Positions 5,680-23,143 of a stretch of DNA of 64,000 bases are shown piece by piece. Each line of letters starts with the position of its first letter. Position 1 is the first letter of the stretch. The notes below the pieces were generated by a model. That model made no database searches. It was not told the DNA's origin and saw only the letters and a program-made list of their open reading frames with translations. Origin of the DNA: Bifidobacterium breve (GTDB lineage Bacteria > Actinomycetota > Actinomycetes > Nanopelagicales > Nanopelagicaceae); contig CAMAYZ010000007.1 of assembly GCA_945863115.1 (NCBI GenBank), positions 1-64,000 on the forward strand. Direction: 5' to 3'. The translations under genes and the position numbers were made by a program.

Positions 5680-6462
5680 GTGGACGAAAAAGACTTAGCT
5701 AGATCTAAAGACTACGTGCAATCTCTGGGGCGCGGTCTTGCAATCATGAAAATATTTAGCGAAGAAAATCCAAGACTTACTCTCTCTGAAGTTGCTGAAC
5801 TAACTGGATACACCCGTGCTACTGCAAGAAGATTTTTACTAACTCTAGAAGCTCTCGGCTATGTAGGCAGCACCGAGCGACATTTCTTTTTGAAATCTCA
5901 AGTGCTGACTCTTGGTTATGCCTATCTATCCTCATTCAGTCTGATCTCAACAACACAGATGCATCTTGAAGAATTGTCAGCAGATTTAAGAGAATCCTGT
6001 TCTGCATCAGTGCTTGAGGGCGAGAATGTAATTTATGTCTGTCGCGTGACTGCAAACCGCATCATGACAATTAACTTGGCGGTCGGTACCCAACTTCCGG
6101 CATATTGCACTTCTATGGGACGAGTCTTACTTGCTTCGATGAAACCAGCTGAAATTGATTCCTACTTCAAGAATGCAAAACTAGAGAAGCTAACTCCGAA
6201 AACTGTAGTTGAAGAAGCAAAGCTTCGAACAATTATTGAAGAAGTCCGTAAAAATGGATATTCAATAGTTTCCGAAGAGTTAGAAGAGGGTCTGGAATCT
6301 GTCTCGGTTCCTATTCATGGGAAAGATGGAAAAGTCTTAGCCGCGGCAAATATCAGTGCTCATGCTGCGCGAGTGAGTATCGATCAACTGCAGAACGAGT
6401 TCCTTCCAAAACTCAAAAAAAGCGTAAAGGACATCGAAAAAGCTCTTGCAATGCAGTCTTAA
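5680..6462 (+). CDS. IclR family transcriptional regulator
   Basis: 260 aa; VQSLGRGLAIMKIFSEENPRLTLSEVAELTGYTRATARRFLLTLEALGYV wHTH and IclR effector domain. Confidence 0.92.
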   Translation: MDEKDLARSKDYVQSLGRGLAIMKIFSEENPRLTLSEVAELTGYTRATARRFLLTLEALGYVGSTERHFFLKSQVLTLGYAYLSSFSLISTTQMHLEELSADLRESCSASVLEGENVIYVCRVTANRIMTINLAVGTQLPAYCTSMGRVLLASMKPAEIDSYFKNAKLEKLTPKTVVEEAKLRTIIEEVRKNGYSIVSEELEEGLESVSVPIHGKDGKVLAAANISAHAARVSIDQLQNEFLPKLKKSVKDIEKALAMQS

Positions 6463-6550: not shown

Positions 6551-7948
6551 ATGGCAATTTCAATGAGCAAAGATTCGGGACTTTCACTTACCGAAAAAGA
6601 TACGAGCTACTTTTTCCATCCATTTACTGCGCTGAAGTCGCACGAATCAACTGGTGGAAAAATTATCGTTGAGGGAAAAGGTTCGACGCTAACCGACAGC
6701 GAAGGCAATAAATTTCTCGATGCTATGGCCGGTTTATGGTGTGTAAATCTTGGCTATGGCAATACTGAACTTGCTGACACCATTCATGATCAGGTTAAAA
6801 AGCTCTCTTATTACCATACCTTCTCTGGAATGAGCACGGACTTAGCTGCTCAACTTTCAGAACGAATAATTAATATGTGCCCAGTTCCAATGTCAAAAGT
6901 TTTCTTTGGTAATAGCGGGTCAGATGCAAATGACACCCATGCAAAAATTATTTGGTTTTACAACAACGCATTAGGAAGACCCGATAAGAAGAAAATTATT
7001 TCTCGCCATCGTGGCTATCACGGAGTAACTGTCCTATCTGCCGGGTTAACAGGATTATCAAATCTTCATGATGGATTTGATTTACCTCTTCCAATGATCA
7101 GACATGTGCGTCCGCCACACCGACTATGGGAGAAAGCACCTGGTGCAACTGATGCGGAATTCTCACAAACTTTGGCCGATGAATTAGAAGCCCTAATTGT
7201 TAAAGAGGGCCCAGATACCGTTGCAGCATTTATTGCCGAGCCAGTGCAAGCTGCGGGTGGTGTAATTGTTCCGCCAAGTGAATATTTCCCAGCGATTCAG
7301 AAGGTCTTGAAGAAATATGATGTTCTGCTCATAGCCGATGAGGTTGTAACTGCATTCGGTCGTCTTGGAAAAATGTTTGGAACCAGCGTTGTTGGCATGG
7401 AACCTGATCTAATGACAATTGCTAAGGGTTTAACTTCGGCCTACATCCCGCTTTCTGGATCAATTGTTTCCGAGAAGGTTTGGAACGTATTGCGTGACGG
7501 TAGCGAAAAATACGGTGCCTTCGGCCACGGTTATACATATTCAGCACACCCGTTAGCAGCTGCTTGTGCATTGAAAACTTTAGAGATAGTCGAACGCGAT
7601 AACTATGTAGGCAAAGCTGAGAAGCAAGGAAAACTTTTACACCAACTTCTACAAACTCATTTTGCAGATCATCCACTTGTTGGCGAAATTCGTGGCCAAG
7701 GTTTAATCGGCGCCGTCGAATTAGTTGCAAATCGCGATAAGCCAGAGGCCTTTGATCCTTCGCTCAAGATTGCACCAAGAGTTGCTAAGCGTTCAATGGA
7801 GTTAGGCGTTATCACTCGAGCACTTCCAGCGGCAGATACCGTTGCATTCTCACCACCATTCATTGTTACTGATTCTGAACTCGAAACTATGGTGAGAACA
7901 GTTCGCAAGGCAGTCGATGAAATCGGCAAAGAAATCGGACGCATGTAA
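6551..7948 (+). CDS. Class III (omega) PLP aminotransferase
   Basis: 465 aa; GLWCVNLGYG, FFGNSGSDANDTH, LLIADEVVTAFGRLG, MTIAKGLTSAYIPLS (PLP Lys). Confidence 0.92.
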   Translation: MAISMSKDSGLSLTEKDTSYFFHPFTALKSHESTGGKIIVEGKGSTLTDSEGNKFLDAMAGLWCVNLGYGNTELADTIHDQVKKLSYYHTFSGMSTDLAAQLSERIINMCPVPMSKVFFGNSGSDANDTHAKIIWFYNNALGRPDKKKIISRHRGYHGVTVLSAGLTGLSNLHDGFDLPLPMIRHVRPPHRLWEKAPGATDAEFSQTLADELEALIVKEGPDTVAAFIAEPVQAAGGVIVPPSEYFPAIQKVLKKYDVLLIADEVVTAFGRLGKMFGTSVVGMEPDLMTIAKGLTSAYIPLSGSIVSEKVWNVLRDGSEKYGAFGHGYTYSAHPLAAACALKTLEIVERDNYVGKAEKQGKLLHQLLQTHFADHPLVGEIRGQGLIGAVELVANRDKPEAFDPSLKIAPRVAKRSMELGVITRALPAADTVAFSPPFIVTDSELETMVRTVRKAVDEIGKEIGRM

Positions 7949-7951
7949 TAA

Positions 7952-9139
7952 ATGCAAAAGCCTGGTGTTTTGAAGATTGGATTTTTGATAAATCCAATTG
8001 CAGGCATGGGCGGCAAAGTTGGTCTCCATGGAACTGATGATTCATTGGCCGAGCGCGCTAAAGAGCTTGGCGCAAAGAGCGTCTCAACAGAGCGAGCTTC
8101 GAGAGCGATTATGGCCCTGCTCCCCCAACTCGAAAAAATTTCTTTTTATGCACCATCTAAATCAATGGGATCAGATTTGCTTCAATCCTTAAATGTTGGT
8201 CATCAGACAATCTATGAAACCGACAGCCTTAATACTTCCTCGGAAGATACAAAAGCAGCAGCTCTTGCCTTTCAAGCAAATGGTGTCGATTTAATTCTCT
8301 TCGCTGGTGGAGATGGAACTGCACGGGATATTTTCTCAGTTGTTGGTGAATCTATTCCAATCTTGGGAATTCCCGCTGGCGTAAAAATGCGAAGTGGCGT
8401 CTTCGCTAATTATCCAGAAGAAGCGGCCGAGATTATTCTTGATGCGATTGCTTCGATTGAAAACGGTAAAGAAATAGCCTTTATTAGTACTGAGGTTTTA
8501 GACCTTACAGATTCAGAACTCGATTACTCGCAATCTCATTACTTTGGCAGTGCTAAAACTTTTCTCGCACCAAGCAAAATAACTAGCCCCAAAGTTAATT
8601 CCAATGCAAGCAGCGATGTTGCACTAAAGGAATTAACAAGGCATTTGGCTACTGAGATTTCTAAAGATCGGCTCTATTTTTTCGGCCCAGGAAGAAGTGC
8701 CAAGTTAATCTTAAATGAATTAGGCGTTACCGATTTAGATCATTCGCTAGCCGGTGTAGATGCCCTTTTTAATGGCAAACTCATTGGAAAGGATCTAGAT
8801 GAGAGCGAGATTCTTGAACTCATAAGTTCACATTCAAAAGTCGCGGGGCCATTTATCTTTCTAGGCGTTATCGGTGGACAAGGGTTCTTGCTGGGCAGAG
8901 GTAATCAGCAATTGAGCCACGAGGTCATGTCCCGCATTGGGGCAGAGAATGCATTTGTATTAGCGAGTGCCAGCAAAATGACCGGAACCGTGCCAACCCG
9001 GCTTTACGTGGACTTTGAAGATGCACTTTCGGAGAAGCTATTCCCAGATTTTATTCAAGTTCACGTTGCGAAAAATCGCACCCTGGTATGTAAAGTTGTC
9101 TCATCGGGATTAGCTACAACGAACGTTAGAGCTAGTTGA
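7952..9139 (+). CDS. ATP-NAD kinase family / AcoX-like protein
   Basis: 395 aa; IGFLINPIAGMGGKVGLHGTDD and FAGGDGTARDI motifs. Confidence 0.82.
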   Translation: MQKPGVLKIGFLINPIAGMGGKVGLHGTDDSLAERAKELGAKSVSTERASRAIMALLPQLEKISFYAPSKSMGSDLLQSLNVGHQTIYETDSLNTSSEDTKAAALAFQANGVDLILFAGGDGTARDIFSVVGESIPILGIPAGVKMRSGVFANYPEEAAEIILDAIASIENGKEIAFISTEVLDLTDSELDYSQSHYFGSAKTFLAPSKITSPKVNSNASSDVALKELTRHLATEISKDRLYFFGPGRSAKLILNELGVTDLDHSLAGVDALFNGKLIGKDLDESEILELISSHSKVAGPFIFLGVIGGQGFLLGRGNQQLSHEVMSRIGAENAFVLASASKMTGTVPTRLYVDFEDALSEKLFPDFIQVHVAKNRTLVCKVVSSGLATTNVRAS

Positions 9140-9166: not shown

Positions 9167-10585
9167 ATGATGGAGAAGAATAAAGACTTGCCAACGCCTC
9201 ATCCTTTTATGGCGAACTCTGCGGAAGCAAGTTTCAATGAGCTACTCAAGGTTGCAAACGTCACCGACATCGATGAATTATTTGAGCAGATTCCAAAAGA
9301 TCATATTTTTAAGGGCGACTGGAATTTCGATCCACAAATTCCCTCCGAAGCTGCGCTCTACAAACATCTAACAAGAATTCTTCGAAAGAACTCTTCTGCC
9401 GAAGAGAACCTAAATTTTCTCGGAGCCGGTTGCTGGCAACATTACGTTCCAGCTATTTGCGATGAGATGGTCACAAGAACTGAATTCCTGACTCCAGTTT
9501 GGGGAACTCCATCTTCTGATCATGGTCGAAATCAAGTCTGGTTTGAATTCCAGAGCCAGATCGGTGAATTAGTTGGAATGGAATTCGTTGGTCTACCGCT
9601 CTATAGCTTTGGAACAGCTGGCGGTCACGCAATTCGCATGGCAGCAAGAATCAATAAGCGCGGCAAAGTTTTAGTTCAATCTTCAATCGACCCTGAGCGT
9701 CTTGCGGTTTTCAAAACCTACTGCGGTTATCCAGAATTAGATGGTTATCTTGAAATCGTTATGGTCGATACAGATGCAAAGACTGGTCGTATCAACCTTG
9801 ATGATCTAAAGGCAAAGATTTCAAAAGATGTCTCTTCTGTTTACTTCGATAATCCAAATTATCTAGGCGTCATTGAAAGTGAAGCTAAAGAGATCGCGAA
9901 GATTGCCCACGATGCTGGCGCAGAAGTAATTATCGGTGTTGATCCAATTTCACTTGGCGTTCTGCCATCGCCTAGCGAATACGGCGCAGATATTGTGGTT
10001 GGCACGACTCAACCGTTGGGCGTTCACATGAATGCTGGTGGTGGCGTTGGTGGATTCATCGCCACAAGAGATGATGAGAAATATGCTCACGAGTATCCAA
10101 CTCTGCAAGTAAGTTTGACCGGAACTTCCGAGCCAGGCGAAATGGCATTTGGCCTAACACTCTTCGAACAATCTTCATACGGATCTAGAGAGCACGGTAA
10201 AGATTGGACTGGTAACTCGGTCTATCTCTGGACAGTTGCAAATGCAACTTACATGTCTGTGCTTGGACCAAATGGTTTTGCTGAAATTGGTAAGACAATT
10301 CTGCAACGTAGCCACTACGCAGCAAAGAAGATTGCTGAGATTCCAGGAGTATCAGTAACTTGGCCTTCAGGTTTCTTCAAAGAATTTGTTGTGAATTTTG
10401 ATGGGACTAAGAAGAAAGTTTCTCAAATTAATAAATCACTTCTAGCAAAGAAAATATTTGGTGGAAAAGACCTCTCGAAGGATTTCCCTAACTTGGGTCA
10501 ATCAGCGCTCTATTGCGTAACCGAAATTCATACCTTGGAGGATTTAGATTCCTTAGTTAGCGCACTGAAGGAGGTAACAAAATGA
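9167..10585 (+). CDS. Glycine dehydrogenase subunit 1 (GcvPA)-like PLP-fold protein, diverged
   Basis: 472 aa; FLGAGCWQHYVPAICDEMVTRTEF resembles GcvPA FLGAG..HY.P; family-typical downstream motifs altered. Confidence 0.82.
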   Translation: MMEKNKDLPTPHPFMANSAEASFNELLKVANVTDIDELFEQIPKDHIFKGDWNFDPQIPSEAALYKHLTRILRKNSSAEENLNFLGAGCWQHYVPAICDEMVTRTEFLTPVWGTPSSDHGRNQVWFEFQSQIGELVGMEFVGLPLYSFGTAGGHAIRMAARINKRGKVLVQSSIDPERLAVFKTYCGYPELDGYLEIVMVDTDAKTGRINLDDLKAKISKDVSSVYFDNPNYLGVIESEAKEIAKIAHDAGAEVIIGVDPISLGVLPSPSEYGADIVVGTTQPLGVHMNAGGGVGGFIATRDDEKYAHEYPTLQVSLTGTSEPGEMAFGLTLFEQSSYGSREHGKDWTGNSVYLWTVANATYMSVLGPNGFAEIGKTILQRSHYAAKKIAEIPGVSVTWPSGFFKEFVVNFDGTKKKVSQINKSLLAKKIFGGKDLSKDFPNLGQSALYCVTEIHTLEDLDSLVSALKEVTK

Positions 10586-12138
10586 TTAAGTCAAAGATTC
10601 GCAAGTATCACGCTCCGGTTTGGGACGAACCACTTGTTATGCAGATGGGTCAGACCGGTCGCCGTGGATCAATCGCGCCAAAGACTGAGAGCAAAATAGC
10701 TGACGCCGTTGGCAACGCTTTAGATTTATTGCCAGCTGGAATGAAGCGAACTAATCCGCTTAATCTTCCAGAACTTTCCGAGTTTGAAGTGCAGCGCCAT
10801 TACCTCCATTTATCTCAACAAACACTTGGCATGATGGGTATCAGCTTGTTCGGTACTTGCACTATGAAATACAACCCAAGAGTAAATGAGCGAATTGTTT
10901 ATCAACCATTTGTCGCTGAAATGCACCCTCATCAAGATCCGGAGACTATGCAGGGAATTTTGGAAGTTGTTAATCGCTTTGATCACTTGCTTCGCAAGTT
11001 ATCTGGTCTAGATAAGTTCGTATTCCAAGCAGGTGGCGGCGCTGATGCTGCATACACTCAAGCTTGCATGACTCGGGCATATCACGCTTCACGTGGTGAA
11101 CTTGAGCAACGAAATGAAATCATCACAACTGCGCAAGCACATCCATGTAATCCAGCTACTGCAGCTGCAGCTGGATTCAAAATAATCACGCTTCCTCTTG
11201 AAGATGATGGTTTTCCTTCAGTAGAAGCGCTAAAGGCTGTTGTTTCCAATCGCACCGCTGCTCTGATGGTAAATAATCCAGATGATATTGGAATTTACAA
11301 TCCAAATATCAAAGAGTGGGTAAAGATTGTTCATGATGCTGGCGGATTATGTTTCTATGATCACGCCAATTTCAATGGCGTAATGACCCGTATTCGCGCA
11401 GCTGATATTGGTTTCGATGCATGTATGTATATGTTGCATAAAACTTTTGGTGGTCCAAAGGGCGGCGGCGGTCCAGCTGTCGGAGCATATGGTTGCAACG
11501 AAAAATTGATTCCATTCCTGGCCGGTCCAACTGTAGAAACAAATCCTGATGGCAGCTTCTACCTTAAAGAAGGTGGCGAACATAGCGTTGGCCGAATCCG
11601 CGAATTCTTAGGAAATATTCCAACAGTTATTCGTGCTTATTCTTGGACTAGATCTATGGGCATCGAAGGTTTACGTGATGCCGCAAATATTTCTGTGCTT
11701 GCCAATAACTATATGGAAAAAAGACTTCTTGAGATTCCTGGAATCACAAAGGGTATGCCAGATGTTAAAGGTCGTCGCCTAGAAATGACTAGATACAGTT
11801 TGGGCGAACTAACTGCGGACACTGGAGTTTCTGTTTTCGATGTTCAAAATCGAATGACTGACTTTGGCGTAGATGCTTATTGGCTAAGTCACGAACCATG
11901 GTTTATTCCAGAACCATTTACTCCTGAAGCTGGTGAATTGTGGTCGGTTGAAGATATCGATTACTGGATCGATGTTCTGGAGACCGTCTGCAACGAAGCT
12001 CGAACTAATCCAGAGCTAGTTAAATCTTCGCCACATAATCAAGTTGTTCATAAGCAGAACTCAACTAACTTAAGTGATCCTGCGAAGTGGGCTACAACTT
12101 GGCGAGCATATAAACGCAAATACGGAATCTCTAATTGA
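10582..12138 (+). CDS. Glycine dehydrogenase subunit 2 (GcvPB)-like PLP protein, diverged
   Basis: 518 aa; GRRGS, GTCTMKYNPRVNE, MLHKTFGGPKGGGGPAVG (PLP Lys context); ATGA overlap with upstream gene. Confidence 0.86.
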   Translation: MIKSKIRKYHAPVWDEPLVMQMGQTGRRGSIAPKTESKIADAVGNALDLLPAGMKRTNPLNLPELSEFEVQRHYLHLSQQTLGMMGISLFGTCTMKYNPRVNERIVYQPFVAEMHPHQDPETMQGILEVVNRFDHLLRKLSGLDKFVFQAGGGADAAYTQACMTRAYHASRGELEQRNEIITTAQAHPCNPATAAAAGFKIITLPLEDDGFPSVEALKAVVSNRTAALMVNNPDDIGIYNPNIKEWVKIVHDAGGLCFYDHANFNGVMTRIRAADIGFDACMYMLHKTFGGPKGGGGPAVGAYGCNEKLIPFLAGPTVETNPDGSFYLKEGGEHSVGRIREFLGNIPTVIRAYSWTRSMGIEGLRDAANISVLANNYMEKRLLEIPGITKGMPDVKGRRLEMTRYSLGELTADTGVSVFDVQNRMTDFGVDAYWLSHEPWFIPEPFTPEAGELWSVEDIDYWIDVLETVCNEARTNPELVKSSPHNQVVHKQNSTNLSDPAKWATTWRAYKRKYGISN

Positions 12139-12155: not shown

Positions 12156-13097
12156 TTGTCTGATCCAAAGTTTTCAATAATCGGGTCAGGCAGTATCGGA
12201 ATTGGCTGGGCAATTGTTTTTGCTCGGGCAGGCTACAAAGTAAAAGTTTACGATATTGAAGAATCTGCTCTTCGTAACTTTGAAGGCCAGGTAAAAAACC
12301 GCCTTGAGTTACTTGATGAGAATAAGTTGCTAACCAATTCTCCTAAGAAAATCATGGGAAGAATTCAGACCACTCTGGACTTAGCAGAGGCAGTTGCCGG
12401 GGCTGATTATGTTCAGGAATGCGGCCCGGAGAATTTAGAATTAAAGCGAGATTTGTTTACTAAGTTAGTGAGCCTAGCTAAGCCAGATGCAATTCTTGCA
12501 AGTTCTTCATCAGCGCTACGGCCTAGTGAATTCGCTTCAAATATCGCAAGCAACGAGAGATGCCTAGTTGTTCATCCAGGCAATCCCCCTTATTTAATTT
12601 CTATCGCTGAAGTTGTTCCTGCAAAGTTCACATCAGAACAATCAATAAAAACTTGCACGGATTTGCTTAATAAGGTTGGGATTATTCCAATTCGCGTTAA
12701 TAATGAACCTCAGGGTTTTGTTTTCAATCGACTTCAGGGTGCAATCTTGCGTGAGGCTTATTGTTTAGTTCGCGATGGCGTTATTTCACCAACTGATTTA
12801 GATTTGATTGTTACTGAAGGCCTTGGAAAGCGTTGGTCCATCGTCGGGCCCTTTGCTACTTCGGCTTTAAATGTTCGCGGTGGAATAAAAGCTCACGTGG
12901 CCAGAATGGGTAAGAGTTACTTTGAAATGGGCAGAGAACGCGGCCAGAACGATCCTTGGGATGAAGCGCTAGTGGAACGTGTTGCTGCTGATATAGAAAG
13001 TAAATTACCTGACGCTAAATGGGAGAAAAATACCGAGAAGCGTGATCTAGCACTTATGAAATTAAATAAGCTTCTGGCAAAGATAGTTAAACCCTAA
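12156..13097 (+). CDS. 3-hydroxyacyl-CoA dehydrogenase family (lambda-crystallin / gulonate or carnitine dehydrogenase-like)
   Basis: 313 aa; FSIIGSGSIGIGWAIVFARAGYKVKVYD Rossmann, ASSSSALRPSEFA, HPGNPPYLISIAEVVPA. Confidence 0.86.
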   Translation: MSDPKFSIIGSGSIGIGWAIVFARAGYKVKVYDIEESALRNFEGQVKNRLELLDENKLLTNSPKKIMGRIQTTLDLAEAVAGADYVQECGPENLELKRDLFTKLVSLAKPDAILASSSSALRPSEFASNIASNERCLVVHPGNPPYLISIAEVVPAKFTSEQSIKTCTDLLNKVGIIPIRVNNEPQGFVFNRLQGAILREAYCLVRDGVISPTDLDLIVTEGLGKRWSIVGPFATSALNVRGGIKAHVARMGKSYFEMGRERGQNDPWDEALVERVAADIESKLPDAKWEKNTEKRDLALMKLNKLLAKIVKP

Positions 13098-13098
13098 A

Positions 13099-13860
13099 TT
13101 ATTTATCCGAGGTGCTTACTAAGGCCCGAACTTTATCTAGCTCAGATTGTTCTGGGGCTTTTGTAGTTTTCAGATTAGGAGAAACCTTTAACTCCCAGCC
13201 AGTGTTTTCAATTGCCTGGCTGATGTCAACTCCGGGATGAAGATATGTCATCGTAAGTTCTAAAGTTTTAGGATCTGGTTCTAAAATTCCTAAATCAGTA
13301 ATAACTCGACTTGGACCACCACCACGTAACCTATTCTTCTCTCTGGATCCAGGTCCATCTCCAAAGCCCATTGAAGTTACGAAATCTACTTGTTTCACAA
13401 AGGTTCTAGTTGTTTGTCGAATAATTATGGCAACCTCTTTGCAAGAGGCGGCAATTTCTGTTGCTCCCCCGGCACCAGGCAGCCGCACCTTAGGTGAGTC
13501 ATAAGTTTGCCCAATAAAAGTTGTATTTATATTTGCGAATCTATCAATTTGAGCTGCGCCCAAAAATCCAACATCGATTCGACCAGATTGCAGCCAATAA
13601 TTAAAGATTTCTGGCATACCAACAACTGTTAGCGCATGGTTGGCCAATTCGCCATCTCCAATAGAGAGTGGCAATTTTTGTGGGTTGGTGTTTACAGTTC
13701 CAGATTCGTAGATCAAAAATAGACTAGGTGCTTGCATAGATTTAGCCAGGATTGCAGCTGTGCTTGGAATACCAATTCCAACAAAGCAGGTATTTCCATC
13801 TTGCAGTGTTCTAGCTGCGGCAATCGTCATCATTTCATCGGCAGTCCAAGTTGTATTCAT
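13099..13860 (-). CDS. CoA-transferase family I, subunit B
   Basis: 253 aa; IYESGTVNT (catalytic Glu context), LPGAGGATEIA. Confidence 0.85.
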   Translation of the reverse strand: MNTTWTADEMMTIAAARTLQDGNTCFVGIGIPSTAAILAKSMQAPSLFLIYESGTVNTNPQKLPLSIGDGELANHALTVVGMPEIFNYWLQSGRIDVGFLGAAQIDRFANINTTFIGQTYDSPKVRLPGAGGATEIAASCKEVAIIIRQTTRTFVKQVDFVTSMGFGDGPGSREKNRLRGGGPSRVITDLGILEPDPKTLELTMTYLHPGVDISQAIENTGWELKVSPNLKTTKAPEQSELDKVRALVSTSDK

Positions 13861-13861
13861 G

Positions 13862-14722
13862 TTATTTACCTGCCGAACTCTTGTTGTAGATCTCGCTATT
13901 CAACCATTCGGTAAATCGATCACGATCTTTAGAAATATCATCCCAAGCAATGTATTGATTATTGTCGCGCTCATAAAAATCTGATGCATATGAAGGCCAA
14001 GCACCATTTGGCACAACCGAAATTGCATCAATTAGATTGCTTGGAATAATTATTGAACTGAATTTAGGTTCGAATTTTTCAACAACTTCTTCGACAGTGA
14101 CAATTACCTTCGATGCTGCGAATACCGCTTCCTTTGCTACTCCAGTAATTCCCCACATCATTACATTTCCAGCTTTATCTGCTTGCTGCGCATGGAGAAT
14201 CGTTACATCTGGATTGATTGCAGCTACGGCTGTAATAACTTCGTCCGAGAAAGGCGACTTAATCTCTGCGACATTCTGAGTGTGGCTAACTAAATCTGAA
14301 CCTGAGTAACCTTTAAGAACAGCGAACCCGATGCCTGAGGCACCCGCAACATATCTATTTGTGAGACCAGCATGTGTGTGCTCTTCAATTTCGATTTTAT
14401 TTGGCCAACTGTTTTGATAAGCATCTCGGAAGCGATGAAGCGAACCAACTCCAGGATTTCCGCCCCAGGAAAAAATAAGTTTCTTAACGCAGCCGGCACC
14501 GATCATCTGATCATAAATTAAGTCCGGAGTTAATCTCACGGCAGTTAAATCCGTAATCTTCTGGCGAATTATTTCGTGCCCTGCGGCAAATGGAATCAGG
14601 TGCGTGAAACCTTCCATGGCAATGACATCACCATTTTTGACATAACTCTCTATAGCTTGGGGTAGCTCGAGAAATTTTGACACCTTTAACGCTCCATCTA
14701 ATTCGATTGTTGCATCAATCAT
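13862..14722 (-). CDS. CoA-transferase family I, subunit A
   Basis: 286 aa; GDVIAMEGFTHLIPFAAGHEIIRQKITDLTAVRLTPDL; adjacent to subunit B. Confidence 0.83.
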   Translation of the reverse strand: MIDATIELDGALKVSKFLELPQAIESYVKNGDVIAMEGFTHLIPFAAGHEIIRQKITDLTAVRLTPDLIYDQMIGAGCVKKLIFSWGGNPGVGSLHRFRDAYQNSWPNKIEIEEHTHAGLTNRYVAGASGIGFAVLKGYSGSDLVSHTQNVAEIKSPFSDEVITAVAAINPDVTILHAQQADKAGNVMMWGITGVAKEAVFAASKVIVTVEEVVEKFEPKFSSIIIPSNLIDAISVVPNGAWPSYASDFYERDNNQYIAWDDISKDRDRFTEWLNSEIYNKSSAGK

Positions 14723-14796: not shown

Positions 14797-15546
14797 ATGA
14801 CGCACACGAACATGGCGAATAAAACTGCCATCGTTACAGGTGGCTCATCTGGAATTGGATCTGCAATTGTTAAGAGATTTGTAGCAAATGGGGCTCAAGT
14901 AATTTCAATTGATTTGAAGAAGCCTGAAGTTGAAATTGGAAGTGTCCATTATTTTGATTGTGATTTGACCAATGAGAGCGAAGTTTCACAGGTATTTAAG
15001 AAAATCTCTGAAAAGCACCCGGTAATCGATGTTCTGTGTGCGAATGCGGGAATTGTTCCAGCATGGAACCGAATAGTTGATACGACTTTTAGCGACTGGA
15101 AAAAAGTTATTGATATCAATGTGAATGCTCTTTTCCTCACGATTGCACAGGGTGCAAAACTACTGAAAAAGGGCTCTGGAACAATCGTGGTTACAGGATC
15201 TATCAACTCAATTAAAGGTGATCCAAATATTGCAGCTTATGTTGCCAGCAAACATGCCGCACTTGGAATCATTAAATCTGCAGCGCTAGATCTTGGACGG
15301 GACGGAATCCGAGTAAATGGCGTTGCGCCAGGACCGATTGCTACTAAAGCGCTGATTTCGCGAATTGAAAATAGGTTAAAGACCAACGGTGGCTCGCTCG
15401 ATGATTATTTAGCAAAGATAGCGGGACAGACCGCACTTGGCAGAATTGCTACTGAAGAGGAAGTTATAAATACAATTGAGTTCTTAGCAATTGAGCTTTC
15501 TTCGGGCATTACTGGTCAGCTTATTTCAGTAGATGGTGGAGCATAA
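14797..15546 (+). CDS. SDR family oxidoreductase
   Basis: 249 aa; TGGSSGIG, CANAG, YVASK, GVAPGPI, SVDGGA. Confidence 0.9.
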   Translation: MTHTNMANKTAIVTGGSSGIGSAIVKRFVANGAQVISIDLKKPEVEIGSVHYFDCDLTNESEVSQVFKKISEKHPVIDVLCANAGIVPAWNRIVDTTFSDWKKVIDINVNALFLTIAQGAKLLKKGSGTIVVTGSINSIKGDPNIAAYVASKHAALGIIKSAALDLGRDGIRVNGVAPGPIATKALISRIENRLKTNGGSLDDYLAKIAGQTALGRIATEEEVINTIEFLAIELSSGITGQLISVDGGA

Positions 15547-15547
15547 A

Positions 15548-16315
15548 ATGACATATGACTTAACTGGAAAAACTGCTTTAGTTACTGGTGCATCTAGAGG
15601 CATCGGTGCTGCTGCTGCTCTGTCACTTGCATCAGCAGGTGCACACGTGATTGCTCATTACAGTTCGTTCGCACAAGGCGCTATCGATAATTTATCCAGC
15701 ATCCCAGATTCTCGTAAGACTTTCATTCAAGAGGATTTAGCGGTTGCTGGTTCTGGTCGAACGCTCTGGCAAAAATCACTTGCAGCGGTGCCCAAGATAG
15801 ATATTTTCGTAAACAATGCTGCAGTTAATATTGAAACTCCCTTTGAAGGCACATCAGAAGTGTGGGATAAGGGTTGGGCAGATACCTTTGCAATCAATGT
15901 TTTTGAAGCCGCGAATATCATGAAGGAAGCAGTTGAGCATTTTCGCAAAATAGAGGGCGGCGTAATAATTTCGATGTCCAGTTGGTCTGGTCAGCGCGGT
16001 TCAGCTCTACCAACTCTTCCTGCATATGCCGCATCTAAAGCCGCAGTAAAAGCCTTGACACAAACTATTGCAAAGAATTTTGCTAAAGAAGGAATCTTGG
16101 CTTACATAATCTCACCTGGAATTGTTAAAACCCGAATGTCAGATTTAGCAGCAGTAGTTCGAGGTGGCGAAGAAGCTATGAAATCTCAGCTAGTAATGGG
16201 CGAACTTGTTAAACCTGAAGAGCTTGGCGAACTTATTGTTTTTCTTTCATCAGGATCCTGCCGTCATCTAACTGGTTCAACCATAGATGTTAACGGCGCC
16301 TCCTATATTCGTTAA
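15548..16315 (+). CDS. SDR family oxidoreductase
   Basis: ORF track start 15533; ATG at 15548 gives MTYDLTGKTALVTGASRGIG; YAASK; paralogue of 2132..2899. Confidence 0.88.
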   Translation: MTYDLTGKTALVTGASRGIGAAAALSLASAGAHVIAHYSSFAQGAIDNLSSIPDSRKTFIQEDLAVAGSGRTLWQKSLAAVPKIDIFVNNAAVNIETPFEGTSEVWDKGWADTFAINVFEAANIMKEAVEHFRKIEGGVIISMSSWSGQRGSALPTLPAYAASKAAVKALTQTIAKNFAKEGILAYIISPGIVKTRMSDLAAVVRGGEEAMKSQLVMGELVKPEELGELIVFLSSGSCRHLTGSTIDVNGASYIR

Positions 16316-17004: not shown

Positions 17005-17766
17005 GTGCCAGCAAGCGAAGTATTGATGGAGCTTTCCGGCGTTCGTAAAACTTTTGGAACTATTGAAGTTTTGCATGGAATTGATTTACAAATTACCAAG
17101 GGAAGTCATGCCGTAATTTTCGGTCCATCCGGTTCTGGAAAATCAACAGTTCTACGTTGCATGAATTTATTAGAAGAACCAGATGTTGGTTCAATTAAAT
17201 TTTTAGGAAATGAATACGGGCCAGGCAATGGCGCCAAGGCTGAAGGTAAGCGCGGAAAACCAATTGAGCTTCGTCGCAAAGTTGGAATGGTTTTTCAACA
17301 ATTTAATTTATTTCCTCACCTATCGGCGCTAGATAATCTAGCTCTACCGTATAGATCTGTTCGTGGTGGATCACTTAGTGAAGCTCAAGAGCGAGCAGCC
17401 CACGAATTAAATAAAGTTGGACTATTAAAGTTTGCCGCAAATTATCCTTCACAACTTTCTGGTGGACAACAGCAACGTGTAGCCATTGCTCGAGCTCTGA
17501 GTTTGGATCCAGAATTAATGTTATTTGATGAACCTACTTCTGCTCTAGACCCAGAACTTGTAGGCGAAGTTCTTGCAGTTATGCGCGATCTAGCGGAATC
17601 TGGAATGACTATGGTCGTTGTTACGCATGAGATGAACTTTGCGCGTGAGATTGGTGATCTCAATATCTTTATGGAGGCCGGAAATATTGTTACTACCGGT
17701 GGTTCTGACTTCTTCGAAAATTGCACAAACCAACGTGCTAAAGAATTTATTGGATCGGTGTTGTGA
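17005..17766 (+). CDS. Polar amino acid ABC transporter ATP-binding protein
   Basis: Walker A GPSGSGKST, LSGGQQQRVAIARAL signature, LMLFDEPTSALDPE Walker B. Confidence 0.94.
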   Translation: MPASEVLMELSGVRKTFGTIEVLHGIDLQITKGSHAVIFGPSGSGKSTVLRCMNLLEEPDVGSIKFLGNEYGPGNGAKAEGKRGKPIELRRKVGMVFQQFNLFPHLSALDNLALPYRSVRGGSLSEAQERAAHELNKVGLLKFAANYPSQLSGGQQQRVAIARALSLDPELMLFDEPTSALDPELVGEVLAVMRDLAESGMTMVVVTHEMNFAREIGDLNIFMEAGNIVTTGGSDFFENCTNQRAKEFIGSVL

Positions 17767-18530
17767 TGTTTAGACTAGAAGAAGATGGTGTCGCACCGAT
17801 TAACTTTATGTGGCACCTGGTCTGGGATTTCAGATGGGATCTCTTTAAGGGCCTCTTAACTGCAATCAGCGTTTCAATAGTTGCACTAATTCTCTCCATG
17901 GTCATTGGCCTAATTTTTGCGCTAGCCCGTATGAGCCGATTCAAAGTTTTCTCAATTTTTGCAAGCTTCTATGTAAATATCTTCCGGGGAATCCCAGCAC
18001 TTGTAAGTGTGATCTGGGTTTACTTCGGCTGGTCCTTGCTATTTGGTCATAACTTCACTGTTTTTCAAGCCGGCGTGATTGCTCTGACCCTTCTTTACTC
18101 TTCATTCTTCTGCGAAATTTTCAGATCGGCTCTGCAGGCTATTCACAAGGGGCAACGTGAAGCAGGTTTGGCTCTTGGATTAACTCGCGGGCGAATCTTC
18201 AGATCCGTGATGCTCCCCCAGGCCACAAAAATCGCGATTCCTAATATTGGAAGCATGTATATCGGAATGATTAAAGACACCTCGACGTTTGCCATTATCG
18301 GTATGGTTGAGGTAGTTCGTGTCACTCAAAATTTAAACTCAACATACTTCCAGCCCTTCGTTCTTTACACAGCAGCTGCTGGTCTTTATGTAATTATCGC
18401 TTTCCTAGTTGACTTCATTTTTAGAAATGTAGAGCTCAACTTTGCATATCCGCCGCAAGGCCGCATCGCTAAATTTCTCAGCCGAAAAAAGAAAAAGAAA
18501 ATCGAAGAGTTGATGAAGTCAACTTTATGA
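17763..18530 (+). CDS. Polar amino acid ABC transporter permease
   Basis: 255 aa; FRGIPALVSVIWVYFGW, EIFRSALQAIHKGQREAGLALGLTRGRIFRSVMLPQA (EAA loop). Confidence 0.93.
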   Translation: MMFRLEEDGVAPINFMWHLVWDFRWDLFKGLLTAISVSIVALILSMVIGLIFALARMSRFKVFSIFASFYVNIFRGIPALVSVIWVYFGWSLLFGHNFTVFQAGVIALTLLYSSFFCEIFRSALQAIHKGQREAGLALGLTRGRIFRSVMLPQATKIAIPNIGSMYIGMIKDTSTFAIIGMVEVVRVTQNLNSTYFQPFVLYTAAAGLYVIIAFLVDFIFRNVELNFAYPPQGRIAKFLSRKKKKKIEELMKSTL

Positions 18531-18586
18531 TTTTCAATTTCAGCCGAGAAAACCCGGGACGTCCCAAACAAATGAAAGGTATAAAA

Positions 18587-19411
18587 ATGCGCAAAAAGAT
18601 TAGCTTGGCTGCAATAGCTGGACTCGTTGCATCCACAGTAATTTTTGCTGGAGCGAATACTTCGGCAAATGCTGCTTCAAACCCACTAAATCTGGTTAAG
18701 CCGGGTTCATTGGTAGTTGGAATGACACTTCAATTCAAGCCACAGATGTATCTAGATGAAGCTGGAAAGCCAGCTGGATACGATGTTGAATTGGTAAAGC
18801 GTCTAGCAAAGTCACTTCGTCTAAAGCTTGAAATTAAGAACATGGACTTTGCTGGTCTTATTCCTGGCCTAGTGTCAAAGCAATTTGACTTGGTTTCAGT
18901 TGGACTTACAAAGAATCCAGATCGCGAAAAGTCAATCCAGTTCGTGCGTGAATACATGCCTTACACAACAGTGTTGGCTGCACGTTCAGGCGATTCAACA
19001 GGCGCTACAAAAGCCCTTTGGAACGTAGCTGGCAAGAAGATTACTGCGCTTCAAGGTGCTGCTGCATCTAGAATCGTAAAGGCAGATTTCCCTGCTACAA
19101 CACTTGTTGAATTCCCACAACAGAACGATGCATTCCTAGAAGTAGTTTCTAAGCGTGCTGATGCAATTGTGGTAGAAGAGAACCTTCTAAACCAATTCAA
19201 TAAGACTAACCCTGGCCAACTTGCAAAGGTAAAGCTTCCTGCGCCACTTAGCCAAGCATTCGGTCAATGGACAGTTCAACTTGGTAACAATGCACTAGAT
19301 GCAAAGTTAACTCGTTGGCTATGTTCAAACCAAGAGGGTGGATATTTAGCATCAGTATTCAAGAAGACAATGGGATATACCCAGCCAACTCTTCCTGAGT
19401 GCACAGAGTAA
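18587..19411 (+). CDS. ABC transporter substrate-binding protein (polar amino acid, SBP family 3)
   Basis: ATG 18587 MRKKISLAAIAGLVASTVIFAGANTSANA signal; PAGYDVELVKRLAK, SVGLTKNPDREKSIQF SBP_bac_3 motifs. Confidence 0.92.
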   Translation: MRKKISLAAIAGLVASTVIFAGANTSANAASNPLNLVKPGSLVVGMTLQFKPQMYLDEAGKPAGYDVELVKRLAKSLRLKLEIKNMDFAGLIPGLVSKQFDLVSVGLTKNPDREKSIQFVREYMPYTTVLAARSGDSTGATKALWNVAGKKITALQGAAASRIVKADFPATTLVEFPQQNDAFLEVVSKRADAIVVEENLLNQFNKTNPGQLAKVKLPAPLSQAFGQWTVQLGNNALDAKLTRWLCSNQEGGYLASVFKKTMGYTQPTLPECTE

Positions 19412-19546: not shown

Positions 19547-20980
19547 ATGAAAACCTTCGACTTGGTTGTTATCGGTGGTGGCCCTGCTGGTATTGCAGCT
19601 GCCGCGACTGCTTCTAAGCATGGGTTGCAAGTTGCCATTATTGATGAGCGACCAACTCTTGGCGGGCAAATTTACAAACGCGTTGGGCCTGGCTTTAAGG
19701 TTAAGAGCGCTAAAGAAGTTGGTAAAGACTATTTTCTGGGCGAAGAATTAATCAATGAACTAGAAAATTCAAGTGTTGAACTATTTTTAGAAACCCTTGT
19801 TGGAACCATTGAGAATTCAGCTGTGGTAATTGTTAGAAATGGCGAAAGCGCCGAGAGGTTGAATTACAAGAAGTTATTGATCTCACCAGGTGCTTATGAC
19901 CGCCCAGTCGCATTCCCGGGCTGGACGCTTCCAGGAGTAATAACTGCGGGTGCAGCGCAATCATTAGTAAAGACTCAACGGGTGAATCCGGGATCTAGAA
20001 TATTTTTTGCTGGTAGCGGACCTTTAGCTCTCGCCTTTCCGGCGCAGTTAAGTGGATATGGCGCAAATATCGTTGGCATAATTGAAGCGGCACCACGACC
20101 AGGAATTTTTAAGGCGCTCCGCATTCTGCTCGCCGTAATCGGTAATTTAGATTTAATGCGTGATGCTGCAAAATACCAATTCCATTTAATTTCTAACCGC
20201 ATCCCAATGACATATCGAAGAATTATCGTCAGCGCCAATGGTAAAGATCGAGTTGAATCTGTTACTCACGCCAAAGTTGATAAAAATTGGCGAGTAATCC
20301 CAGGAACTGAAAAAACGGTTGAAGTAGATGCGCTCTGTGTTGGATATGGCTTCTTCCCATCTGTTGAACTATTCCGGTTATTAGATTGCGAATTAGAATA
20401 TGAAGAGAGCCGTGGTGGGGCTGTCGTTAAATTAGATAACTGGGGCGCAACATCCGTTGCAAATGTATTTGGAGCTGGCGATGGCACCGGAATTTCTGGT
20501 TCATATGTGGCAATCGCTCGGGGCCGACTTGCGGCACTTAAAATTGCAGCCGAACTTGGAAAAATCTCAGATAAAGCTCTGTCAACCCTGGCGGCTGGCT
20601 ATCAGAGAACTTTTTCCCAGAGAACTAAGTTTCAACGTGCTATCAACAACGCTTACGAAATTAAGAGTGGCATTTATGAACTTGCAGATAATGGAACGGT
20701 GATTTGCCGATGCGAGTCCGTTAAATTAGAGAGCATTCTGCCAGTTCTAGAATCAACGATTGATCCTTCGGTTGTTAAGGCTTACACCAGATGCGGAATG
20801 GGACTCTGTCAGGGTCGCAACTGTCAACGACAGATTTCTGCGCTAATCGCTCAAAAGCATGGAATACCAATATCGCAAATCACTCAAGCAACGCCAAGAT
20901 TCCCGACAAAACCAATCAAGCTTGGACAGATTGCTGATGCAACAGTTACCTCTGAGAAATACTTTATCGATGCTGAATAA
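19547..20980 (+). CDS. FAD/NAD(P)-dependent oxidoreductase, HcnB / D-hydroxyproline dehydrogenase alpha-like, with BFD-like 2Fe-2S domain
   Basis: 477 aa; LVVIGGGPAGIAAA, GGQIYKR, FPGWTLPGVITAGAAQ, CRC...CGMGLCQGRNC. Confidence 0.88.
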   Translation: MKTFDLVVIGGGPAGIAAAATASKHGLQVAIIDERPTLGGQIYKRVGPGFKVKSAKEVGKDYFLGEELINELENSSVELFLETLVGTIENSAVVIVRNGESAERLNYKKLLISPGAYDRPVAFPGWTLPGVITAGAAQSLVKTQRVNPGSRIFFAGSGPLALAFPAQLSGYGANIVGIIEAAPRPGIFKALRILLAVIGNLDLMRDAAKYQFHLISNRIPMTYRRIIVSANGKDRVESVTHAKVDKNWRVIPGTEKTVEVDALCVGYGFFPSVELFRLLDCELEYEESRGGAVVKLDNWGATSVANVFGAGDGTGISGSYVAIARGRLAALKIAAELGKISDKALSTLAAGYQRTFSQRTKFQRAINNAYEIKSGIYELADNGTVICRCESVKLESILPVLESTIDPSVVKAYTRCGMGLCQGRNCQRQISALIAQKHGIPISQITQATPRFPTKPIKLGQIADATVTSEKYFIDAE

Positions 20981-22181
20981 TACTTTTCTGCCTGGATATC
21001 TCAGCCAATCTGAGAATTTTGAAGAGCTGCCAACGCAGAGCGATGTTGTAATTATTGGTGGCGGACTTTTAGGAACTGCACTCTCCTACTACTTAGCAAA
21101 ATCTGGTGTCGAAGTAACTCTGCTAGAGCGAAATGATTTAAATCGTGAAGCATCCGGAACTAATGCTGGAAGCTTCCACTTTCAAATTGCACTTCACCAG
21201 CTAACCGACAATATGACTGACGCTGACGACAAGCGTTTAGCCGAAGAAACTAAGTTGATGTTAGATGCCGCAATGCTCTGGGATGATATTGAGAAAGAGT
21301 TAGATGCTGATCTTGGCGTTCACTTCACTGGCGGATTTATGGTTGCTGAGACCCAAGAAGAGCTTCAAGTACTCCGCGATAAACAGCGAATCGAAGAGAT
21401 TGCCGGTCTTGAGACCCAAGTAATGACCGGAAATGAAATGCGAGAGTTTGCCCCGTATTTAGCGCCAGACTTGTCCGGAATCGCTTTCTGCCCACGAGAA
21501 GGACATGCCAATCCACTTCTAGTTGGACCAACTTATGCATATCGCGCACATCAACTTGGCGCAAAGATTCGCACCAATTGTGAAGTCATTCGAATCGAAC
21601 AGATAACTGGAATACCTGGCTTTCGATTTAAAATTCATACTAATCGCGGAACCATTCTTTGCAATCGTGTAGTTAATGCAAGTGGTGCCTGGACTGCTGA
21701 AATATCTTCGCAGCTAGGTTTGAATTTACCAATGGGTTTAAGTGGCCTACATGTAAATGTTACCGAGCCTAGAGAATACTTCTTGGAAGCCATGGTTCAA
21801 CATATCGGGCGCCGGTTAACTCTTAAACAGACTACAAACAATACTTTCATCATTGGTGGCGGCTGGCCTTCTCGCGAAGAGAAGTTTCCGCTGCGCTATT
21901 CGAACTTTTGGGAAAGCGCGGCAGGTAATGCAGCAGTTGCGGTCCGAGTTCTTCCAATGCTTAAAGATGTGCAATTAGTTCGAGTCTGGTCTGGTGTTTG
22001 GGCATATACAAATGACTTCAAACCAATTCTTGGCGAATCTGAAAAAATACCGGGCTACCATATTGCAATGGTCCCAACAGGTTTTACACTAGGTCCTATG
22101 GTCTCCAGAATGCTTGCTGAATATATGTCGCAACCTGGCGCTAAAGGCCTTATTCCAAATGAATTCCACGTTGATCGCTAA
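20970..22181 (+). CDS. FAD-dependent amino acid oxidoreductase (DadA-like, HcnC/D-hydroxyproline dehydrogenase beta-like)
   Basis: Internal ATG at 20970 overlaps upstream gene; DVVIIGGGLLGTALSYYLAKSGVEVTLLE, EASGTNAGSFHFQ. Confidence 0.87.
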   Translation: MLNNTFLPGYLSQSENFEELPTQSDVVIIGGGLLGTALSYYLAKSGVEVTLLERNDLNREASGTNAGSFHFQIALHQLTDNMTDADDKRLAEETKLMLDAAMLWDDIEKELDADLGVHFTGGFMVAETQEELQVLRDKQRIEEIAGLETQVMTGNEMREFAPYLAPDLSGIAFCPREGHANPLLVGPTYAYRAHQLGAKIRTNCEVIRIEQITGIPGFRFKIHTNRGTILCNRVVNASGAWTAEISSQLGLNLPMGLSGLHVNVTEPREYFLEAMVQHIGRRLTLKQTTNNTFIIGGGWPSREEKFPLRYSNFWESAAGNAAVAVRVLPMLKDVQLVRVWSGVWAYTNDFKPILGESEKIPGYHIAMVPTGFTLGPMVSRMLAEYMSQPGAKGLIPNEFHVDR

Positions 22182-22207: not shown

Positions 22208-23143
22208 ATGGATAGAAACTCCATCGATTGGAAGGGTTACTGGCCCGCAAGCCCTACCCCTTTTAAAGAGAATGGCGACCTAGACCTTGAAACTTTTGGG
22301 AAGTTAGTCGATTGGTATCTCGAGTGTGGAATGCATGGCATTTTTGTTAATGGAACTACTGGCGAATGGTTTTCCCAAACGATTCCAGAGCGCAAAGAGT
22401 TAATTGAATTTGTATTAGATCGAGTAGCCGGTCGAATTCCAGTAGTCGTTGGTATTACAACATTTACCGCTCGTGATTCAATCCCATTAGGTGTGCATGC
22501 GATGGCAGCCGGCGCCGCTGGTGTTTGTTCATCTGCTCCCGCTTATGCAAAGACACTTCCAGATGAGACCGTGGCTTATTTCTCTGAACTTTCAACTGGT
22601 ATTCAAGGTCCAGTCATGATTTATAACTGGCCACACGGAACCAATATTGAAATCGAGGGCGAACTCGCTGAGCGCTTAGCTGATGTAGAGAACATTGTTG
22701 CAATCAAAGACAGCACAGCGAATGGCGATCAGTTTAGAGATACCGCTCGCCGCGTAAATGACCGAGTCCGAATTTATGGAAATTTCATGGTTCCTGAAAA
22801 TCTAAAGTTCATGCAGCAATATGGTGGTGACGGAACGATTGGTGGCGGAAGTATCTATGGAAAAGCTGATCCATTGTTCTGGGAAAATTACTGGAGTGGA
22901 AACATCGAAGCTGCTCAGAAGCATGCAGTCGAGAATGAAATACTTCTTGGAAAGCTCTGGCAACCAGGTGGTTGGCGTGGAATTTACGGCTCGTATCAGA
23001 GCCAATTAAAAGCAATCATGAAAATTATGGGACTTCCTGGTGGCAGCGTTAGAGCCCCACGTCTTCCACTAACAGATCCAGCTAGCCTTGCAAAAATCAG
23101 AGCAACTTTAATCGAATGCAATATCCCAGTCGGAAAGGAATAG
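22208..23143 (+). CDS. DHDPS/N-acetylneuraminate lyase (DapA) family aldolase
   Basis: 311 aa; NGTTGEW, MIYNWP (Tyr), VAIKDST (Schiff-base Lys). Confidence 0.9.
   Translation: MDRNSIDWKGYWPASPTPFKENGDLDLETFGKLVDWYLECGMHGIFVNGTTGEWFSQTIPERKELIEFVLDRVAGRIPVVVGITTFTARDSIPLGVHAMAAGAAGVCSSAPAYAKTLPDETVAYFSELSTGIQGPVMIYNWPHGTNIEIEGELAERLADVENIVAIKDSTANGDQFRDTARRVNDRVRIYGNFMVPENLKFMQQYGGDGTIGGGSIYGKADPLFWENYWSGNIEAAQKHAVENEILLGKLWQPGGWRGIYGSYQSQLKAIMKIMGLPGGSVRAPRLPLTDPASLAKIRATLIECNIPVGKE

What the first reader, a model, noticed from the sequence alone, without database searches (positions are those of the whole stretch)
9167..12138. Diverged GcvPA/GcvPB-like PLP pair without GcvH or GcvT: possible new P-protein-derived enzyme
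Two translationally coupled genes (4-bp ATGA overlap) have the architecture of split glycine decarboxylase P-protein, but no H-protein, T-protein or lipoamide gene lies nearby. Motifs that I recall as conserved in glycine-cleaving P-proteins are changed. In the A subunit, the segment after FLGAG..HY.P reads WGTPSSDHGRNQVWFEFQ instead of a YTPYQPE(I/A)SQG..Q..FE.Q-type motif, and LYDGATA becomes LYSFGTA. In the B subunit, AHGTNPASA becomes AHPCNPATA, DGANLNA becomes DHANFNG, and KTFSTPHGGGGPGSG becomes KTFGGPKGGGGPAVG. The PLP-lysine context (LHKTF) and CTMKYNP are kept. The changes cluster around the substrate/lipoyl pocket, so the pair is probably catalytic but may act on another amino acid or without H-protein.
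Basis: partly seen in the sequence, partly recalled or inferred. Interest (0 to 1): 0.75.

Follow-up and report, generated by a model that had tools for sequence, protein, structure and literature searches.

The report
Glycine-decarboxylase-derived enzyme family, unknown substrate
Two coupled genes encode a vitamin-B6 enzyme built like the glycine-cleaving P-protein but with a rebuilt substrate pocket and no H-protein partner; it belongs to a widespread family, hidden under the label 'glycine dehydrogenase', that almost always sits beside an uncharacterised kinase in catabolic gene clusters.

Summary
In detail: two genes overlapping by ATGA (9167-10585, 10582-12138) encode a split P-protein-like pair with the stated motif changes. 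The genome has its own full-length GcvP (975 aa) plus GcvH and GcvT elsewhere, so the pair is a paralogue. It is accessory (3 of 27 genomes of the genus).

The pair defines a clade outside canonical GcvPA/PB sampled from the same phylum (100/100 support, both subunits). Relatives occur in Actinomycetota, Alpha-, Beta- and Gammaproteobacteria and haloarchaea, labelled GcvPA/GcvPB where annotated. PLP residues are kept. The glycine-site motif YTPYQPExSQG becomes VWG-TPSSDHG, one residue deleted. Two modelled H-protein contact positions are lost; a Lys and an Arg are gained in PB where canonical proteins keep His and Glu. No gcvH lies near any of 87 loci.

An AcoX/NAD-kinase-like kinase lies beside the pair in 81 of 87 loci (median gap 96 bp). 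Class III aminotransferase, succinate-semialdehyde dehydrogenase, gulonate-dehydrogenase-like enzyme, SDRs and SoxB-type oxidase are frequent.

Best reading: a PLP decarboxylase or lyase for a larger acidic amino acid, perhaps phosphorylated by the kinase, working without lipoyl-H. Substrate and reaction are not shown.

The parts
9167..10585 (+). A subunit (GcvPA-like, 472 aa), lacking the canonical YTPYQPExSQG motif
10582..12138 (+). B subunit (GcvPB-like, 518 aa), with PLP lysine K287, H187, D260; family-specific K293 and R404
7952..9139 (+). AcoX/ATP-NAD-kinase-like kinase (395 aa), GGDGT motif at residues 119-123; beside the pair in 81 of 87 related loci
6551..7948 (+). class III aminotransferase, nearest solved relatives 4-aminobutyrate/omega transaminases
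12156..13097 (+). 3-hydroxy-acid dehydrogenase, nearest solved relative lambda-crystallin (L-gulonate 3-dehydrogenase)
5680..6462 (+). IclR-type regulator of the PcaR/PcaU/PobR subfamily
13099..13860 (-). CoA-transferase subunit B-like
13862..14722 (-). CoA-transferase subunit A-like
14797..15546 (+). SDR oxidoreductase
15533..16315 (+). SDR oxidoreductase, overlapping the previous gene
17005..19411 (+). ABC importer (ATPase, permease, solute-binding protein) of the same cluster
19547..22181 (+). SoxA-like and SoxB/ThiO-like FAD oxidoreductase pair (two ORFs)
22208..23143 (+). DHDPS-family lyase/aldolase

Best explanation
The pair is a heterodimeric (PA-PB) PLP fold-type-I enzyme that descends from the P-protein but is no longer the glycine decarboxylase of the glycine cleavage system. 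It most likely still forms an external aldimine with an amino acid on Lys287 of PB and generates a Calpha carbanion, probably by decarboxylation. Its pocket has been rebuilt for a substrate other than glycine, probably larger and carrying a second anionic group, and it works without lipoylated H-protein. It is one step of a mobile catabolic pathway that includes an AcoX-like kinase (possibly phosphorylating the substrate or product), an omega-transaminase with succinate-semialdehyde dehydrogenase, and a 3-hydroxy-acid dehydrogenase. Shown: family, conservation, cluster. Inferred: PLP catalysis, altered substrate, H-independence. Hypothetical: the kinase-then-PLP-enzyme order.
For: Clade outside canonical GcvPA and GcvPB with 100/100 support in both subunits (larger PB tree). 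PLP residues kept: K287, H286, H187, D260. Pocket: canonical YTPYQPExSQG becomes [VF]WG-xPSSDHG with one residue deleted; human Y161 and Y164, which I place in that motif, are listed as active-site residues (PMC7259800; alignment). H->K at PB 293 (100% in each group) and E->R at PB 404. Positions that I equate with human R373/K376, modelled as H-protein contacts in PMC7259800, are R and K/R in all 28 canonical rows but mostly S/L/M/A and D/E/N in the family. No gcvH in any of 87 loci; one distant GcvT-like hit, in L057. Canonical GcvP+GcvH coexist in the own genome and in 19 of 20 hosts. Kinase beside the pair in 81/87 loci, median gap 96 bp; in 0/20 random 20-kb stretches from host genomes. 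Neighbour enrichment over the same control: transaminase 31/55, HCDH 34/55, SSADH 27/55. AlphaFold PB model matches GcvPB structures best.
Against: No biochemical data. Active-site residues were mapped by alignment, not on a heterodimer model, and the PB monomer model is only moderate (mean pLDDT 77, low near several active-site loops). The H-protein contacts come from a docking model in the cited paper. Several subclades lack the transaminase and HCDH nearby, so the pathway role is not uniform. One host (Actinomadura, G304) showed GcvH but no second GcvP in the held contigs. Neighbour counts are not corrected for shared ancestry.
Confidence: 0.62

Rival explanations
1. Kinase-coupled lyase: the AcoX-like kinase phosphorylates a hydroxylated amino acid and PA-PB then decarboxylates it or cleaves/eliminates the phosphate through the PLP carbanion, as sphingosine kinase and S1P lyase act in sequence. 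K293 and R404 would bind the phosphate. This is a specific version of the best explanation.
For: Kinase adjacency; GGDGT invariant in 56 of 56 kinase homologues; one AcoX-like kinase, in Peptoclostridium, overlaps a HisC/CobD-like PLP gene, a class that acts on phosphorylated substrates; DAGK-type catalytic domain detected.
Against: The kinase substrate is unknown; AcoX-like genes also occur without the pair; six loci lack the kinase, some of them truncated contigs; nothing shows order of action.
Confidence: 0.28
2. The pair is still a glycine decarboxylase, a second P-protein borrowing the genome's GcvH and GcvT.
For: Passes NCBIfam GcvPA and GcvPB cut-offs; the genome has GcvH and GcvT; PLP site kept.
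Against: Glycine-site Tyr motif and the modelled H-contact residues replaced family-wide; a canonical GcvP is already present; linked to a kinase and catabolic genes, never to gcvH.
Confidence: 0.1
3. A P-protein-derived PLP enzyme that does carbon-carbon bond chemistry without net decarboxylation (retro-aldol or retro-Claisen on a 3-hydroxy or 3-oxo amino acid), fed by the HCDH and SDR dehydrogenases.
For: HCDH related to L-gulonate 3-dehydrogenase and SDRs in the cluster; CoA-transferase and thiolase in some clusters.
Against: HCDH absent nearby in many loci; CoA-transferase only 8/55; P-protein chemistry is natively decarboxylative.
Confidence: 0.17
4. A catalytically dead or regulatory paralogue.
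For: Long stem branch.
Against: PLP residues invariant, pocket under strong conservation, cluster conserved across phyla.
Confidence: 0.03

Closest known systems
Glycine cleavage P-protein, split form GcvPA/GcvPB (T. thermophilus 1WYT/1WYU; NCBIfam NF001696, NF003346)
   Same: Two-subunit architecture, fold, PLP lysine and PLP-contact residues; about 30% (PA) and 35% (PB) identity.
   Different: Glycine-site motif replaced with a one-residue deletion; modelled H-protein contacts lost; 22 PA and 41 PB positions differently fixed; outside the canonical clade; never beside gcvH; beside an AcoX-like kinase.
AcoX / ATP-NAD kinase family (PF01513, PF20143, PF00781)
   Same: The neighbouring kinase matches these domains and keeps GGDGT.
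   Different: No NCBIfam equivalog and no close solved structure; the genome has a separate NAD kinase; substrate unknown.
Sphingosine kinase plus S1P lyase
   Same: Analogy only: a DAGK/NADK-superfamily kinase supplying a phosphorylated substrate to a PLP fold-type-I lyase.
   Different: No orthology; S1P lyase is a generic fold match at rank 37.
G204 pair (locus L009) from a deep relative in the same phylum
   Same: 48% identical PB, also beside an AcoX-like kinase.
   Different: Keeps parts of the canonical pocket (STPHGSGGP, EPTES), so it looks intermediate.

Membership tests
Glycine cleavage P-protein (GcvPA/GcvPB) | PLP fold type I, PLP lysine in LHKTF, H and D of the PLP site | tested here: met
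Glycine cleavage P-protein (GcvPA/GcvPB) | Score above the curated NCBIfam cut-off | tested here: met
   431>364 and 488>441 bits
Glycine cleavage P-protein (GcvPA/GcvPB) | Glycine-site motif YTPYQPExSQG (human Y161, Y164) | tested here: not met
Glycine cleavage P-protein (GcvPA/GcvPB) | H-protein contact residues (human R373, K376, from a docking model) | tested here: not met
Glycine cleavage P-protein (GcvPA/GcvPB) | Falls inside the canonical clade | tested here: not met
   separate clade, 100/100; canonical sample from the same phylum only
Glycine cleavage P-protein (GcvPA/GcvPB) | Linked to gcvH/gcvT or sole P-protein of the genome | tested here: not met
Glycine cleavage P-protein (GcvPA/GcvPB) | Decarboxylates glycine and loads lipoyl-H | not testable with these tools
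   needs enzyme assay
AcoX/ATP-NAD-kinase-like kinase (neighbour gene) | NAD_kinase N- and C-domains and GGDGT motif | tested here: met
   N-domain in 56 of 56 homologues, C-domain in 53 of 56 (not scored in the window's own copy), GGDGT invariant
AcoX/ATP-NAD-kinase-like kinase (neighbour gene) | Phosphorylates NAD, or a known substrate | not testable with these tools
   no characterised close relative found

The most novel reading that the evidence does not exclude
A previously undescribed catabolic pathway, shared by bacteria and haloarchaea, in which an AcoX-like kinase phosphorylates a hydroxylated amino acid and an H-protein-independent P-protein derivative removes CO2 with loss of the phosphate. 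The internal leaving group would take over the role of the lipoyl disulfide as electron acceptor.
Probability: 0.14. Interest if true: 0.85.

Novelty: new variant of a known kind. Interest (0 to 1): 0.64.

Why it matters
P-protein is a textbook one-reaction enzyme. A large, horizontally spread branch of it that dropped the H-protein and changed its substrate would be a new PLP activity, with a concrete partner kinase whose function is also unknown. All its annotated members seen here are called glycine dehydrogenase, so glycine-cleavage and reductive-glycine-pathway predictions from genomes may be wrong where only this pair is present.

Tried and rejected
Canonical P-protein with missing neighbours: rejected as the main reading, because a full GCS exists elsewhere in the genome. 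Chance or pseudogene: rejected by conservation. Gene fusions that might reveal function: long PA, PB and kinase ORFs looked like unfused 5' read-through in GC-rich genomes. Fold search with the kinase model (pLDDT 90) gave no significant match, best sensible ones diacylglycerol kinases. Paper searches for the pair, for AcoX with PLP enzymes and for H-independent P-protein found nothing relevant. Neighbours of AcoX-like genes outside the family gave no clear function. Specific substrates considered and left open: hydroxylysine or 2-aminoadipate type, 3-hydroxyglutamate, opines, hydroxyproline-type peptides.

Full report
Observation. The two ORFs and all quoted motifs are as described, and the stop of the first gene overlaps the start of the second as ATGA. 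PF02347 hits PA, and NCBIfam glycine dehydrogenase models hit both subunits above cut-off, as do the T. thermophilus P-protein subunits. An AlphaFold model of PB matches GcvPB structures best.

Genome context. The genome (1.32 Mb, 93.5% complete) also carries a 975-aa canonical GcvP and GcvH on contig C3 and GcvT on C13. The canonical GcvP keeps YTPYQPEISQG, QHIRRDKATSNICT, AHGTN and LHKTFCIPHGGGGPG. Only 3 of 27 genomes of the genus have the pair, whereas canonical matches occur in nearly all of them. The pair is therefore an accessory paralogue.

Family. tblastn on plasmid records found seven bacterial and one haloarchaeal relative at 52-62% identity, annotated GcvPA/GcvPB where the record has annotation. 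One scan of species genomes returned 80 loci from Actinomycetota and Alpha-, Beta- and Gammaproteobacteria. In PB and PA trees the family is a clade apart from canonical proteins of the same phylum, with 100/100 support (a larger, quicker PB tree agrees, where one row labelled canonical, L130, is in fact the Rhodococcus jostii RHA1 member of the family). Caveat: the canonical sample is limited to that phylum, plus T. thermophilus in the alignment.

Pocket. 22 PA and 41 PB positions that are at least 90% conserved in canonical proteins are differently conserved in the family. The canonical PA motif YTPYQPExSQG becomes [VF]WG-xPSSDHG, with one residue missing in essentially every family member; REQHIRREKATSNICT becomes QxSYGxRExGKDWTGNS. 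PMC7259800 lists human Y161 and Y164 as active-site residues and models R373 and K376 as H-protein contacts. The mapping to human numbering is my inference through the shared motifs. In PB, PHGGGG becomes PKxGGG (K293, fixed), MHEF becomes MTRY (R404, fixed), and the HPPT-YFP/EPTETE segment becomes DAxWxSHEPW/PEAGE. K287, H286, H187 and D260 are kept. Two new basic residues in motifs where the canonical protein keeps His and Glu suggest a substrate with an extra acidic group; that step is inference.

Cluster. The AcoX/NAD-kinase-like gene is near the pair in 81 of 87 loci, with a median gap of 96 bp and 28 divergent arrangements. Several of the six loci without it are truncated contigs. It is absent from 20 random 20-kb stretches of host genomes. 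Its GGDGT motif is invariant in 56 homologues, and the genome has a separate NAD kinase. Class III aminotransferase, SSADH, IclR, HCDH, SoxA/SoxB-type oxidases, SDRs and, less often, DHDPS-type lyase and OYE are enriched over the same control. These counts are not corrected for shared ancestry. The Paracoccus plasmid pAMI4 and a Natronosalvus (haloarchaeal) plasmid carry much of the same gene set. No GcvH gene lies in any family locus; the only GcvT-like hit is a distant one in L057.

Coexistence. Of 20 further host genomes, 19 have a separate canonical GcvP and all have GcvH. The exception, an Actinomadura draft, may reflect missing contigs.

Mechanism. The pair very likely remains a PLP enzyme and very likely does not serve the glycine cleavage system. 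The most probable reaction is decarboxylation or lysis of another amino acid via a PLP carbanion that does not need lipoyl-H. The kinase next door suggests a phosphorylated substrate or product. The Peptoclostridium case, where a related kinase overlaps a HisC/CobD-like PLP gene, and the sphingosine kinase/S1P lyase precedent (general knowledge) make this plausible but unproven. The transaminase-SSADH pair suggests that the carbon leaves as a semialdehyde and dicarboxylic acid; this too is inference.

Novelty. I found no paper describing the family (open-access library only). I rate it a new variant of a known kind, with the substrate as the open question.

Noticed in passing
window 2132-38504: The pair lies in a catabolic region of about 36 kb: SDRs, SoxA/B-type oxidases, two DHDPS, OYE, DAO, amidohydrolase, Opp-type importer, M24 peptidase, DUF885. 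Beyond it lie housekeeping genes such as dnaG, a Dus gene and leuA. GC content is flat.
   Followed up: partly
L126, L133, L134 (Natronosalvus halobius plasmid, about 52-150 kb): A haloarchaeal plasmid carries the pair, the kinase, DHDPS, SDRs, CoA-transferase and class III aminotransferases, with Xaa-Pro peptidases and oligopeptide importers.
   Followed up: partly
L125:8992-11068: In Peptoclostridium acidaminophilum an AcoX-like kinase gene overlaps a HisC/CobD-like PLP gene.
   Followed up: partly
L047 (CAMCVO010000004.1): A record titled Bifidobacterium breve MAG is syntenic with, and 89% identical in PB to, the window's actinobacterial locus; the name is probably wrong.
   Followed up: no
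L048, L049 (contigs JAQCKU010000054.1 and JAQCKU010000012.1) and G350: One MAG carries two copies of the pair, each with transaminase, kinase, HCDH and CoA-transferase; G350 also has two copies.
   Followed up: no
NCBIfam NF001696, NF003346: Both equivalog models accept the window's pair above cut-off, which explains why annotated relatives are named glycine dehydrogenase subunits.
   Followed up: yes
L009 (G204): A deep relative with a partly canonical pocket and an AcoX-like kinase next to it: a possible evolutionary intermediate.
   Followed up: partly
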